DNA of 64,000 nt, taken from positions 3,748,001-3,812,000 of the forward strand of contig NC_087082.1 in assembly GCF_026151205.1 (NCBI RefSeq), read 5' to 3'. Source of the DNA: Bolinopsis microptera. Taxonomy: Eukaryota > Ctenophora > Tentaculata > Lobata > Bolinopsidae. The notes below the pieces were generated by a model. That model had not been told where the DNA came from, made no database searches, and worked only from the letters and a program-made list of their open reading frames with translations. The translations under genes and the position numbers were made by a program. Below, in pieces: positions 44,244-63,655 of the stretch; position 1 is the first letter of the stretch; each line of letters opens with the position of its first letter.

Positions 44244-46079
44244 AACATTGTTGACTAAACCAGACTGTGCACGTTACGTTGCGCTAAATGTCAATGTTGC
44301 AGATAGCGTATACGTTTTTTAAACTATGTTTTGATTTGATTTGACTTAACTTGTAGTTACTGTTAGTTTCGACACTAAATATTTTGTTCTCGCATGAGTA
44401 TATAAATGTTTGATACGAATTATGAAATGAGAAGTCGTGTATTGTGTATATTTATATCATATCCATTGAATTATAATTATATTCATGGGACCACTACCAG
44501 CAAAAGCTCACAGTTAACAGCATTTGTTTTTATTTATGATAAGATGATAAGTTCGTTATGAGCAATTTTTAATTTAGTTCGTATCAGGCTAGGAGTCTAG
44601 TAATCGAGTTTTATTTGATAATAAAAAAAAACTTCTCTACGGTATTAGGAAAACTGCTGTGATAGATCGGAGCGCAGCAAAAAATTTAATAGCTTGTCCT
44701 GGACCGAATTCTACCAAATATTATCACTACAAGTATAACACTTTTCGGATTTAGAAGGGTGCTGTCCAGACTATGAGTGTGTTAACAGTGCGCGGTGATA
44801 TGATTGAAGCTGAAGTCAGCACTAAAAATTAAAGTAGATATTATTATTAGAAAATATATGAATTTGGGACAAAATAATTTACTATCGAAGGAAATAAATA
44901 TTAACTTTTTGATAAGAAAAGCGATTACTAACTTCAGTTACACAAACACTGCATGGCAATACGATTACAAATTGTTTAAATGTTAAATCCGGGTATCGCT
45001 ATTAGTATTGTGCTATTGTGCCAAAATTACAATATTATCTGGTCAATCGTAATCATTTGCAATTTGGAAGACCCCTCTGCTGATATGTAAACGACCCCTT
45101 ATATTAACTTGATTGTAGCAAACCGCGTGATGTTTATTGATCATCAGTTCGATAGGACAATAGTTATGAGAAAAGCTACAAAACTACAATTTCCATAACC
45201 AGTTTTAGAACTAAACGCTTGATTGAGGGTTCAGAACTTTATTTGAATAACAGGGCCTCCCACGGATTAAACAGTTTTGTGCGGAGAAAGAAGTGAAGAG
45301 AGTACGAAGCCAAAGAGTTCTCCGACAATTGTTCCATCTAGCATCACCGCAGCAACGCCAACAGCAAGCAGGGACTTATCCATGCAACCTATACAACGCT
45401 GACCCAGAATGGACATGCCACGGTACCGCACTATAATATTTGATTTGATTCTCCTTGATAGCACTAGCAGTAGCAGAATTTGCTGCTTGTAATTTCTGGG
45501 CGTTGCTGAACCTGTCATTCCGCCCTATCTGCTATAGGCATATTTTTAATCGCCATAATATGTTCAATGTTAAATCAATGTGTTTAACTTAATAAATACA
45601 AAAGCCTGAGCGAGGTACCGTTCCCAGGTAAATTCATCTTTGCAAGTTGAATTTGCGTTTCTGAAACCACTCTCTGCACTGGTAATTGTATTTAAAAGGG
45701 AACACAAAATGATGTACGTGACCAAAATTATTCCCCGCGCGACGCAATTAGATTCTCTTTCAGCATTAAGTTTCAGTTTCTGGGTAATTCGCGCGTAAAA
45801 TCATATTTGCACGTGTGCGTTCCATGTTCTCAGAATTAGGCAACGGTAAGTTTAATCTTTAACTTTAACTTTTTTGAAACAGGTGTTGTTATTTCATGCT
45901 GGGAATCCCAAAAAGTGCTTGATCGGCCAGTTCATCATTGTGTCTCGCTAAATACTTGGCTTATAGTTTCATTATGCTGATCGACTGATCATCACTGTGG
46001 ATTGGGGATGGTATTCAACTGTTGAGGGCCTACTGTAACAGCCATTGATACGCTTATAGTTATCAGACAGCAACTAACT

Positions 46080-46230
46080 GATATCCAATGGATCTCAGCC
46101 ATAGAACAATACAGGTTCAACGGTGGCTCGGAAAAGTATAATCTTCGTGGTCTTATATATGATTTTGGTCTATTAGAACGAGTTTTAAGTGAAATATATC
46201 CTCCAGAGATGATGACTAATAAAAATAATA
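46080..46230 (-). pseudogene. Non-LTR reverse transcriptase remnant at inner edge of left arm
   Basis: The minus strand carries a frame containing KTRSNRPKSYI and LYFSEPPLNLYCSMAE, the decayed counterpart of the plus-strand RT C-terminal sequence at 59,590-59,690 in the right arm. It is too short to classify alone. Confidence 0.45.
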
Positions 46231-59084: not shown

Positions 59085-59690
59085 ATACTGTGACAATGGC
59101 ATCAACTGTGTGGCACCCGATATCCTAAAAAGAGTAGATATTGACAATATAATCCTTAATCTGTTTAACCGTGCTACTGCTATTAGTATTGTGGATGGAG
59201 ATTGGAGATGCTCCCGCCCATTCATGCATGGCGGATTATCAATATTGTCCCAATGTCCAAAATAGGAAATCTCACAAAGGCTGACAACTACATTAAGTGG
59301 TTCACCATCATCAATTGTCAGCAAAACTCTCAACCGCATGATCCTTATCAGTTAAGTTGAGAGAGACCCGCTCGGGGTATTCTGATGAACATACTGACAG
59401 CATGCCTACGGTATCCGTATTGTATTCCAAGGCCCATAAGTTAGGCTGATTCGACACTATGGAAAAATCCATTCTTGCAGGAGTTATGCAAGGGAATACG
59501 CTACCTGTTTGTCATAACTTATATTGAAGCTGTGTTGTGCAAAAGTCATAGAAGGTCGTGATCAATTGGCTTCAAACTCGTTGTAATAGACCAAAATCAT
59601 ATGTCATATGTAAGACCATGAAGATTATACTTTTCCGAGCCACCGTTGAGCCTGTATTGTTCTATGGCTGAGACCCATTGGATATCAGTT
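59085..59690 (+). pseudogene. Degenerate non-LTR reverse transcriptase
   Basis: Plus-strand pieces in shifting frames: APDILKRVDIDNIILNLFN (59,110-59,165), IVPMSKIGNLTKADNY (about 59,240-59,290), SIVSKTLNRMILI (59,315-59,350) and KIILFRATVEPVLFYG (about 59,620-59,670). Order and motifs match RT domain motifs 1-3 and the late FRATVEPVLLYGSE motif of CR1/RTE-like elements. Several stops and frameshifts. The last part lies inside the right inverted arm. Confidence 0.68.
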
Positions 59691-60149
59691 AGTTGCTGTC
59701 TGATAACTATAATAAGCGTATCAATGGCTGTTACAGTAGGCCCTCAACAGTTGAATACCATCCCCAATCCACAGTGATGATCAGTCGAAGCATAATGAAA
59801 CTATATAAGCCAAGTATTTAGCGAGACACAATGATGAACTGGCCGATCAAGCACTTTTTGGGATTCCCAGCATGAAATAACAACACCTGTTTCAAAAAAG
59901 TTAAAGTTAAAGATTAAACTTACCGTTGCCTAATTCTGAGAACATGGAACGCACACGTGCAAATATGATTTTACGCGCGAATTACCCAGAAACTGAAACT
60001 TAATGCTGAAAGAGAATCTAATCACTATGACTAATTGCGTCGCGCGGGGAATAATTTTGGTCACGTACATCATTTTGTGTTTCCTTTTAAATACAATTAC
60101 CAGTGCAGAGAGTGGTTTCAGAAACGCAAATTCAACTTGCAAAGATGAA

Positions 60150-60290
60150 TTTACCTGGGAACGGTACCTCGCTCAGGCTTTTGTATTTATTAAGTTAAAC
60201 ACATTGATTTAACATTGAACATATTATGGCGATTAAAAATATGCCTATAGCAGATAGGGCGGAATGACAGGTTCAGCAACGCCCAGGACT
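60150..60290 (-). mobile_element. Long-form ACTGGGC-type element in right arm
   Basis: Carries TACCTGGGAACGGTACCTCG..AGGC at one side and GGCGGAATGACAGGTTCAGC at the other, with a longer centre than the 80-bp copies. The counterpart in the left arm is 45,495-45,632. Confidence 0.6.
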
Positions 60291-61034
60291 TACAAGCAGC
60301 AAATTCTGCTACTGCTAGTGCTATCACGGAGAATCAAAGCAAATATTATAGTGGTACCGTGGCATGTCCATTCTTGGTCAGCGTTGTATAGGTTGCATGG
60401 ATAAGTCCCTGCTTGCTGTTGGCGTTGCTGCGGTGAGGCTAGCTGGAACAATTGTCGTAGAACTTTTTGGCTTCGTACTCTCTTCACTTCTTTCTCCGCA
60501 CAAAACTGTTTAATCCGTGGGAGGCCCTGTTATTCAAATAAAGTTCTAAACCCTCAATCAAGCGTTTAGTTCTAAAACTGGTTATATTATGAAAATTGTA
60601 GTTTTGTAGCTTTTCTCATAACTATCGTCCTATCGAACTGATGATCAATAAACATCACGCGGTTTGCTACAATCAAGTTAATATAAGGGGTCGTTTACGT
60701 ATCAGCAGAGGGGTCTTCCAAATTGCAAATGATTACGATTGACCAGATAATATTGTAATTTTGGCACAATAGCACAATACTCATAGCGATACCCGGATTT
60801 AACATTTAAACAATTTGTAATCGTATTGCCATGCAGTGTTTGTGTAACTGAAGATAGTAATCGCTTTTCTTGTCAAAAAGTTAATATTTATTTCCTTCGA
60901 TGGTAAATTATTTTGTCCTAACTTCATATATTTTCTAATAATATAAAATTGGTTTAGGACCAATACAATGTCAATAAGTCATGTGGCATGTAAGGCGCCA
61001 ACGACAAATTGCTAAAAGGCGCGGCGCAACTGCT

Positions 61035-61293
61035 GAAAACTGCCACTAACTGTCACTAACTGCCACTAACTGCCACTAACTGCCACTAACTGCCACTAAC
61101 TGCTACAAACTGCCACTAACTGCTGCAAACGGCGCGCACAGTGCGTGGGCGCGATTGTAGCAGTTAGTGGCAGTTAGTGGCAGTTAGTAGCAGTTAGTGG
61201 CAGTTAGTAGCAGTTAGTGGCAGTTTGTGGCAGTTAGTGGCAGTTAGTGGCAGTTAGTGGCAGTTAGTAGCAGTTAGTGGCAGTTTCTTTGCA
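61035..61293. repeat. Inverted CCACTAACTG decamer arrays (right arm)
   Basis: Same structure as 43,873-44,085: about eight forward units, a GC-rich spacer with GCGTGGGCGCGATTG, then about thirteen inverse units. Ends in GTTTCTTTGCACTTAGCTCC. Confidence 0.9.
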
Positions 61294-61364
61294 CTTAGCT
61301 CCTCCTGTGTTCAAGCTTCCTGAACATACGTGAGATCAGAACTAAGAAAGCATATATATTTTAT

Positions 61365-61415
61365 ATATCCATAGACACAGTGTTTCGTCCTATTAGGACT
61401 CATCAGTAGGGCTCA
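61365..61415 (-). ncRNA. Type I hammerhead ribozyme, downstream copy
   Basis: Minus strand: core CTGATGA (61,406-61,400), stem II GTCC/GGAC with TAATA loop, core GAAA (61,386-61,383), stem III of three pairs (ACA/TGT) with CTG loop, cleavage after C at 61,374 (GTC). Stem I pairs in four of five positions next to the core (TATGG with CCCTA). All invariant core bases are present. Confidence 0.8.
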
Positions 61416-61642
61416 AATCATCAGGGTTGATTTTTGCTGATGGCGGGAATCGAACCAGCAATCTTACGACTGCTGGCCCGGGACAATGCCACTGCACCAC
61501 CAAGCCCTTAATGATGAGGGAAAGAAATAGGTACCAGAGTGCTCTACAGACTCATTACGAGTTAGGAGCTTTGCGTTTAAGCTAAGCGGTAGATCTATTC
61601 ATTCCCCAGAGTGCTCAAGCTTAGTAAACTAGACGAGCATAT

Positions 61643-61695
61643 TTATCCATAGAGACAGTGTTTCGTCCTATTAGGACTCATCAGTATGGCTTATC
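61643..61695 (-). ncRNA. Type I hammerhead ribozyme, upstream copy
   Basis: Minus strand: CTGATGA (61,684-61,678), same stem II and loop, GAAA (61,664-61,661), predicted cleavage after C at 61,652. Stem I pairs perfectly over five positions (CCATA with TATGG). Stem III has one C-C mismatch compared with the other copy, so activity may be reduced. Confidence 0.78.
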
Positions 61696-61705
61696 TTAAA
61701 CAATA

Positions 61706-63107: not shown

Positions 63108-63655
63108 CGGGCCCTTTTAGGACCGTGACTCAGGCCCTTTTAGGACCGTGACTCAGGCCCTTTCGGGACCGTGACCCAGGCCCTTTTGGAACTCATACCT
63201 AGGCCACGTGACCCAGTTACCACGTGACCCAGGCCCTTTCGGGACCCTGACCCAGGCCCTTTCGGGACCGTGACCCAGGCCCTTTCGGGACCCTGACCCA
63301 GGCCCTTTCGGGACCGTGACCCAGGCCCTTTCGGGACCCTGACCCAGGCCCTTTCGGGACCGTGACCCAGGCCCTTTTGGAACTCATACCTAGGCCACGT
63401 GACCCAGTTACCACGTGACCCAGGCCCTTTCGGGACCCTGACCCAGGCCCTTTCGGGACTGTGACCCAGGCCCTTTTGGAACCCATGCCTAGGCCACGTG
63501 ACCCGGTTACCACGTGACCCAGGCCCTTTCGGGACCATGACCCAGGCCCTTTCGGGACCGTTACCCAGGCCCTTTCGGGACCATGACCCAGGCCCTTTCG
63601 GGACCGTTACCCAGGCCCTTTCGGGACCGTGACCCAGGCCCTTTCGGGACCGGGC
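63108..63655. repeat. GC-rich 23-bp minisatellite
   Basis: More than twenty units of AGGCCCTTTCGGGACCGTGA plus CCC, with a longer variant block (AGGCCACGTGACCCAGTTAC inside) that recurs three times. The unit is 23 bp, so any frame repeats with 69 bp; the long minus-strand frames are by-products. Confidence 0.92.

What the first reader, a model, noticed from the sequence alone, without database searches (positions are those of the whole stretch)
61360..61700. tRNA-promoter unit bracketed by two hammerhead ribozymes
Seen: two copies of an intact hammerhead core (CTGATGA, stem II, GAAA, GTC cleavage site) 278 nt apart on the minus strand, with a tRNA-like A/B-box segment between them. Known: hammerhead SINEs (Sm-alpha) and retrozymes make self-cleaved monomers and circles. 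Inference: this is a Pol III-driven retrozyme-like SINE; one-strand tandem arrangement implies release of a 278-nt RNA. It abuts both the 17.5-kb inverted-repeat block and a second dispersed repeat, so it may mark a recurrent insertion site.
Basis: partly seen in the sequence, partly recalled or inferred. Interest (0 to 1): 0.8.

Follow-up and report, generated by a model that had tools for sequence, protein, structure and literature searches.

The report
Self-cutting jumping repeat in comb jelly
A short non-coding jumping DNA repeat, apparently from a comb jelly, carries a self-cutting RNA motif in its units and a possible built-in start signal, and most copies studied sit in TATATA stretches, which hints at how such elements are switched on and copied in animals.

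Summary
On the minus strand of 61362-61691 there is one 278-nt unit bounded by two hammerhead cores, with Pol III-type A and B boxes between them. One hammerhead passes Rfam's gathering score. The other has a broken stem III pair. The unit belongs to a dispersed, partly tandem family: 71 alignments in about 40 places, plus 20 shorter copies. It fits metazoan non-LTR retrozymes, which are non-coding hammerhead repeats thought to spread through RNA circles.

Two features go beyond the papers I read. First, 22 of 26 full units carry spaced A/B boxes, whereas a review says retrozymes seem to lack promoters. Second, 48 of 52 copies have a (TA)n stretch at a junction (6 of 52 when looked for 100 nt away), with a near-constant 3' end about 8 nt past the cleavage site and scattered 5' ends. 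Penelope-like elements of this genome also end in (TA)n, so copying by a Penelope-type enzyme is likely. The window copy is damaged and lies in a duplicated 1.6-kb segment, so it does not mark a recurrent insertion site. The host looks like a ctenophore. No RNA evidence was available.

The parts
61362..61691 (-). whole retrozyme copy: hammerhead, one full 278-nt unit, second hammerhead, short tail
   Evidence: shares its outer sequence with the copy at C11:26203-26660
61644..61691 (-). upstream hammerhead; predicted cut between 61652 and 61651; stem I CCATA/TATGG intact, stem III broken (GTCTC instead of GTGTC)
   Evidence: (RF00008 30.1 bits, below gathering 48.5)
61374..61651 (-). 278-nt unit from cleavage site to cleavage site
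   Evidence: family unit in L040 is 277 nt
61489..61499 (-). A-box match TGGTGCAGTGG (loose form of the consensus)
61447..61455 (-). B-box match GTTCGATTC
61455..61476 (-). hairpin CCAGCAGTC-GTAA-GATTGCTGG between the boxes
   Evidence: coordinates; paired in the circular fold
61366..61412 (-). downstream hammerhead; predicted cut between 61374 and 61373; stem III intact, one stem I mismatch (CCCTA)
   Evidence: RF00163 Hammerhead_1 35.6 bits (gathering 34), E 3.2e-5
61341..61373 (-). 3' end: TATGGATA followed by TA-rich flank, the 3' junction common in the family

Best explanation
The element is a damaged copy of a metazoan-type non-LTR retrozyme: a non-coding retroelement of about 277 nt per unit, each full unit holding one type I hammerhead and, as a rule, one A/B-box Pol III-type promoter. 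Proposed cycle. (1) Pol III starts just upstream of the A box and reads through, because most units lack a T-run terminator (inferred). (2) In copies with two or more hammerheads the RNA cuts itself into units (the motif is shown, cutting is inferred). (3) Units with 5'-OH and cyclic-phosphate ends are ligated into circles by a host tRNA ligase (proposed from assays for other animal retrozymes, inferred here). (4) A Penelope-type reverse transcriptase nicks (TA)n microsatellites and starts cDNA synthesis inside the RNA, about 8 nt past the cleavage site. It runs for part of a unit or several units, leaving a fixed 3' end, scattered 5' ends and sometimes arrays (end structure and target shown, enzyme inferred).
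For: Hammerhead: Rfam above gathering in the window and 35.9 bits for each of 10 hammerheads in L040, L032 and L045. The hammerhead mutates less than the rest of the unit in 36 of 36 scorable loci of the 37 given (1.9% against 4.2% for the body and 10.1% for the box region).

Family: 71 alignments, 84 hammerhead patterns against 2 control, 76 hammerhead-plus-tail patterns against 0 control.

Promoter: both boxes at spacing 44-54 in 22 of 26 units, one of these (L033) by a shifted A-box match; no TTTT in 24 of 26 units.

Insertion: 48 of 52 copies have (TA)4+ within 40 nt of a junction (43 of 47 after dropping look-alike flanks), against 6 of 52 for the same test 100 nt away. Lengths 39-1816 nt. 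Target duplications of 10 nt or more in 15 of 52, against a shuffled-pair mean of 6.8 and maximum of 12. Joined flanks match an uninterrupted dispersed repeat for seven copies.

Penelope: 147 GIY-YIG matches, six loci read, five of them Penelope-like. A constant Penelope 3' end: 31 of 42 alignments stop at query base 138 and one at 139. TA runs there in 20 of 20 read; in 14 of 20 the run is at least 4 nt longer than the query's own.

Array homogeneity: C1 array units differ by 0-1, C9 units by 0. Circular fold z = -3.7.
Against: No RNA data: transcription, cleavage and circles are not shown. The Penelope loci examined with Rfam (seven) carry no recognisable hammerhead, and the unit shares no sequence with ten Penelope loci beyond chance, so the partner rests on a shared target and tail type alone. 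In the Anolis Penelope, hammerhead mutants insert as well as wild type and uncut RNA is the main substrate, so cleavage or circles need not matter for insertion. Array homogeneity is weak evidence: three of the four C1 units lie only 0.4% from an outside unit (the fourth 0.7%; L034), about as near as to each other. The C6 array mixes two subtypes in the order A A B B A (10-12 differences), which one monomer circle cannot make, and the C12 array units differ by 6-15 sites. tRNA covariance was positive, weakly, in only one of three units. 4 of 26 units fail the box test and 2 hold TTTT. Only 52 of 61 copies entered the junction statistics; 4 of the 52 (L049, L052, L071, L077) lack the TA run.
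Confidence: 0.68

Rival explanations
1. An ordinary SINE mobilised from linear Pol III transcripts: the (TA)n flank is transcribed as a tail and primes on (TA)n targets. The hammerhead is then a relic or a 3'-end device, and arrays arise by unequal exchange.
For: Most copies have one hammerhead (35 of 52) and 31 of 52 read TATGGAT-ATAT at the end, which a TA-tailed linear template explains without circles. Five copies begin about 11-16 nt upstream of the A box, where Pol III would start (one of them, L061, is outside the 52). The mixed C6 array fits exchange. Uncut RNA is the main substrate of the Anolis Penelope.
Against: Arrays of near-identical 277-nt units with clean hammerhead-to-hammerhead joints (C1, C9) and the conservation of the hammerhead. 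Two copies run on with the unit's own AAAT after GGAT (L071, L076), as from a continuous multimer or circle.
Confidence: 0.3
2. A hammerhead satellite: arrays grow and spread by recombination or extrachromosomal DNA circles, without retrotransposition.
For: Tandem arrays with up to seven hammerheads.
Against: Constant 3' end, graded 5' truncation, (TA)n targets, duplications above control and filled versus empty sites are marks of target-primed reverse transcription. 39 of 52 copies show fewer than two hammerheads.
Confidence: 0.05
3. The copying enzyme is a LINE-type non-LTR retrotransposon with a (TA)n preference rather than a Penelope element.
For: No shared sequence between the retrozyme and the Penelope loci examined; LINE ends were not examined.
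Against: Penelope elements are abundant here and end in (TA)n. Start of synthesis inside the RNA past the hammerhead resembles the Anolis Penelope. 16 of 56 copies have a flank matching a Penelope locus, though Penelope abundance alone may explain that.
Confidence: 0.2

Closest known systems
Metazoan non-LTR retrozymes (Cervera and de la Pena 2020, PMC7229834; abstract and sections 13, 14, 17 read)
   Same: Type I hammerheads in small tandem repeats (277 nt against 150-450), GC below 50%, no protein frame, self-paired predicted circle, Penelope elements in the same genome
   Different: Internal A/B boxes and a constant 3' end in (TA)n. A word search of that paper found no Pol III, SINE, ctenophore or microsatellite, and the 2020 review (PMC7761336; passages and section 9 read) says retrozymes seem to lack promoters and, in animals, any motif naming the partner enzyme. 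A later plant paper does report a promoter in the LTR of a Nicotiana retrozyme (PMC9695139, abstract in the listing only).
Schistosome hammerhead satellite/SINE (Sm-alpha; Ferbeyre 1998 not held, recalled; boxes A and B reported in PMC2576457, passages seen)
   Same: Hammerhead plus Pol III boxes A and B in a short repeat
   Different: Different phylum; sequence not compared (none held). (TA)n targeting and graded 5' truncation are not something I could check for it.
Penelope-like elements with hammerheads and internal start of reverse transcription (Frangieh 2024, PMC11167929, main text read)
   Same: AT-rich target, synthesis starting inside the RNA past the hammerhead, tandem copies
   Different: No protein coded here; hammerhead with stem III rather than the minimal Penelope type; the Penelope loci scanned in this genome lack a hammerhead
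Plant LTR retrozymes (PMC4918200, search listing only; features from PMC7229834 and PMC7761336)
   Same: Non-coding element with hammerheads in repeated parts and a proposed circular RNA intermediate
   Different: Plants use type III hammerheads in LTRs with 4-bp duplications; here type I, no LTRs

Membership tests
Metazoan non-LTR retrozyme | type I hammerhead | tested here: met
   RF00163 above gathering in the window for one of two hammerheads (35.6 of 34 bits) and for 10 hammerheads of 3 relatives
Metazoan non-LTR retrozyme | tandem repeats of 150-450 bp with one hammerhead each | tested here: met
   277-nt spacing; arrays with up to seven hammerheads
Metazoan non-LTR retrozyme | no protein frame, low GC | tested here: met
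   no open frame of 120 aa or more overlaps the element; GC 0.455 and 0.460 in two units
Metazoan non-LTR retrozyme | target duplications longer than 4 bp | tested here: inconclusive
   10 nt or more in 15 of 52, against control mean 6.8 and maximum 12; (TA)n targets blur the ends
Metazoan non-LTR retrozyme | expressed as linear and circular RNA | not testable with these tools
   no RNA data
tRNA-type SINE | internal A and B boxes at tRNA spacing | tested here: met
   22 of 26 units; shuffles 2 (strict) or 11 (loose) of 3000; box consensus recalled
tRNA-type SINE | recognisable tRNA-derived head | tested here: inconclusive
   RF00005 17.4 bits (gathering 29), E 0.15 in L040; none in the window or L032; ARAGORN only at lowered thresholds
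tRNA-type SINE | constant 3' end joined to a simple tail | tested here: met
   TATGGAT then ATAT in 31 of 52; (TA)4+ at a junction in 48 of 52
Penelope-like element | encodes reverse transcriptase and GIY-YIG endonuclease | tested here: not met
   unit too short and non-coding
Plant LTR retrozyme | type III hammerhead in LTRs | tested here: not met
   RF00163 type I match; no LTR layout seen in 61 copies

The most novel reading that the evidence does not exclude
In a ctenophore, a member of the lineage some place as sister to all other animals, a self-contained RNA-circle element carries its own Pol III promoter. A Penelope reverse transcriptase copies it by running round the circle from a nick in a TA microsatellite. 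This would supply both the promoter and the partner enzyme said to be missing for animal retrozymes.
Probability: 0.33. Interest if true: 0.75.

Novelty: new variant of a known kind. Interest (0 to 1): 0.55.

Why it matters
Two open points about animal retrozymes are how they are transcribed and which enzyme inserts them. A review I read states that they show neither a promoter nor a motif naming the partner. This family has both kinds of clue: Pol III-type boxes in most full units, and a near-constant 3' end in TA microsatellites that Penelope elements of the same genome also use. That makes both points testable with one RNA and one protein. It also appears to extend retrozymes to ctenophores. 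In the held library, one search (hammerhead, ctenophore, ribozyme) returned no paper. One search listed 40 of 305 papers; one of the 40 (PMC10886601) names both Mnemiopsis and retrozymes, but its passages concern an unrelated LTR element in Mnemiopsis and cite plant retrozymes elsewhere. The other 265 were not seen, and most subscription journals are not held.

Tried and rejected
Rejected: a chance hammerhead (84 matches against 2 control); a satellite spread by DNA recombination only (constant 3' ends and empty sites); a real tRNA gene (ARAGORN finds none at its normal threshold; the covariance model is weak or silent); a Penelope element with the same hammerhead as direct parent (none seen among the pattern matches, of which the six new places were not fetched; loci L092-L098 gave no Rfam hammerhead; loose motif matches in L088-L093 and L096, I judged accidental by eye, and L088-L091 were not scanned with Rfam). 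The first genome search, with RF00008, found nothing, but its control genomes rang nowhere either, so it says nothing. The exact hammerhead core also occurs in one viral contig (L099) with unrelated flanks. 5' ends cluster near the expected Pol III start (4 of 52 at 137-139 of the unit), but other clusters are as large, some made of duplicated loci, so I do not rely on it. Three of the 84 pattern matches (C6:8222854-8222983) have no proper stem II and look accidental. Of 21 of 52 joined-flank matches several are weak or driven by microsatellite; I count only seven (L041, L044, L045, L059, L064, L065, L067).

Not tested: whether LINEs of this genome also end in (TA)n; sequence similarity to Sm-alpha; other ctenophore genomes.

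Full report
Observation. Rfam finds the downstream one above its gathering score (RF00163, 35.6 bits, E 3.2e-5 for the whole window). The upstream one reaches only 30.1 bits with RF00008 (gathering 48.5); a G-to-C change breaks its middle stem III pair, and the sister copy at C11:26203 is intact there. The downstream one has a stem I mismatch that the sister copy shares. An A box (61499-61489) and a B box (61455-61447) stand between them.

Family. A search of the window's own genome (264.65 Mb, 232 contigs) with 461 bases gave 71 alignments, which I group by hand into 40 places (tally). A hammerhead pattern gave 84 matches against 2 for the reversed pattern. 20 places were outside the first set, apart from three accidental matches at C6:8222854-8222983. 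I read 525-528 bases around each of the 20. All are short copies truncated at the 5' end. 16 end in the hammerhead and TATGGAT with TA-rich DNA next; L071 and L076 have TA-rich DNA on the 5' side only; L083 runs into TA DNA without the GGAT; L085 has a degraded end. A hammerhead-plus-tail pattern gave 76 matches against 0, six of them at places I did not fetch. Counts are lower bounds. Arrays hold up to seven hammerheads, about 277 nt apart.

Anatomy of the unit. In L040 the unit is 277 nt, GC 0.455, without TTTT on the sense strand. As a circle it folds at -84.6 kcal/mol, z = -3.7 against 100 shuffles; the window unit gives z = -3.9. Of 26 full units, 22 keep both boxes at 44-54 nt spacing and 24 lack TTTT. 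The box variants are TGGCCCAGTGG, TAGCTCAGTGG, TGGTGCAGTGG and, by a shifted match in L033, TGGCTTGGTGG; and GATCGATAC, GATCAATAC, GTTCGATTC, GTTCAATAC. They differ at positions where the consensus (recalled, from no call) is degenerate, although their region is the most variable of the unit. That is partly by construction, since only matching units are listed, and four units fail. By mismatch rate over 37 loci given (36 with enough sites), the hammerhead has 1.9%, the body 4.2% and the box region 10.1%; the hammerhead is lower than the rest in 36 of 36. The loci were chosen by similarity to the window copy, so this is not a random sample. A tRNA origin is not established: RF00005 scored 17.4 bits on L040 (E 0.15) and nothing on the window or L032.

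Ends and targets. Of 61 copies in the fetched loci and the window I kept 52 for the junctions. Dropped were five without a terminal motif, L031 as duplicate of the window copy, L048 and L053, whose last motif is not at the 3' end, and one composite in L034. In 48 of 52 a run of four or more TA or AT steps lies within 40 nt of a junction; the same test 100 nt away gives 6 of 52, and 1 of 34 and 2 of 34 at 200 and 300 nt. Some copies have look-alike flanks and are not independent; without five of them it is 43 of 47. By side it is 40 of 52 (3') and 30 of 52 (5'), against 4 and 2 of 52 at 100 nt. The 3' end is TATGGAT, then ATAT in 31 of 52. That is 7-8 nt past the predicted cleavage site, so the template was not cut there. 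5' ends scatter over the unit and lengths run from 39 to 1816 nt. Target duplications of 10 nt or more occur in 15 of 52, against a mean of 6.8 and a maximum of 12 in 200 re-pairings. For seven copies the joined flanks align over 295-300 bases to an uninterrupted copy of the surrounding dispersed repeat in L046 or L054 at 78-94%. These are the marks of target-primed reverse transcription into TA microsatellites.

The likely enzyme. GIY-YIG matches are abundant (147). Of the six loci returned, five (L089-L093) look like Penelope-like elements: GIY-YIG with a cysteine-rich stretch, and in L091 an upstream frame that I read as reverse transcriptase by eye (Pfam named the GIY-YIG of L092 but not that frame). 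The best hit, L088, looks like a cellular gene. The Penelope 3' end is constant: of 42 alignments to one tandem junction, 31 stop at query base 138 and one at 139. I read 20 of these 32 ends. A TA run stands at each. The query itself ends in a 9-base run, so the fair measure is that 14 of 20 runs are at least 4 bases longer and 19 of 20 at least 2 longer. The Penelope junctions and loci scanned lack a Rfam hammerhead and share no sequence with the unit beyond chance. 16 of 56 retrozyme copies have a flank matching a Penelope locus, which Penelope abundance could explain. In Anolis a Penelope protein starts synthesis inside its RNA, past the hammerhead, on AT-rich nicks; hammerhead mutants did not change insertion (PMC11167929, main text read). 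The end structure here resembles that, though the offset differs.

Circle or line. The C1 array has four full units differing by 0-1 base, the C9 array two identical units 1.4% from their nearest outside relative. Both fit several rounds on one circle, but three of the four C1 units are also only 0.4% from an outside unit (the fourth 0.7%), so C1 says little. The C6 array reads A A B B A for two subtypes 10-12 differences apart, and the C12 array units differ by 6-15. So circles are possible, but template switching, exchange or multimeric transcripts must also occur. A linear TA-tailed transcript remains the main rival.

This copy. Window 61310-62894 matches C11:25092-26660 at 95.3% over 1606 aligned bases, retrozyme included. 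It was duplicated with its surroundings, is damaged in both hammerheads, and does not mark an insertion hot spot.

Host. Thirteen contigs of 15-26 Mb make up 97.5% of the assembly (contig lengths). Of 32 receptor matches I compared two with solved structures. The glutamate receptor in L105 has as its best solved relative ML032222a (E 1.2e-33), which I recall as a Mnemiopsis protein, ahead of the vertebrate receptors listed. L100 matched kainate receptors best. Together with the published n = 13 assembly of Bolinopsis microptera (PMC10232365, passages seen; 97.23% in 13 scaffolds) a lobate ctenophore is likely; the species is not proven.

Comparison. Defining features of metazoan non-LTR retrozymes that could be tested are met or inconclusive. 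The A/B boxes resemble the schistosome hammerhead repeat (PMC2576457 passages). The combination of hammerhead, Pol III-type boxes, graded 5' truncation and TA-microsatellite 3' ends I did not find in print in the searches made (listings, with the papers named above opened), in a library that lacks most subscription journals. I call it a new variant of a known kind.

Noticed in passing
window 61038-61123 and 61160-61285: Two opposed 10-bp minisatellites (AACTGCCACT and its reverse complement) form a large palindrome just beyond the element's 3' flank.
   Followed up: partly
window 44842-46189 and 59570-60943: Inverted repeat arms of about 1.4 kb at 95.7% identity, 13 kb apart.
   Followed up: no
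window 63110-63652: 23-bp/290-bp tandem array, open in two minus-strand frames as a repeated peptide.
   Followed up: no
L036 (C6:1741000-1744600): Array of five full retrozyme units in the order A A B B A, two subtypes 10-12 differences apart, at even spacing: possible template switching.
   Followed up: partly
L099 7214-7238: The same 25-base hammerhead core in a 7.3-kb viral contig (IMG/VR), with unrelated flanks and, by eye, a differently arranged hammerhead.
   Followed up: partly
L094, L095: Tandem Penelope elements joined through a short ATATATATA between inverted GTAGAAGT/ACTTCTAC stretches.
   Followed up: no
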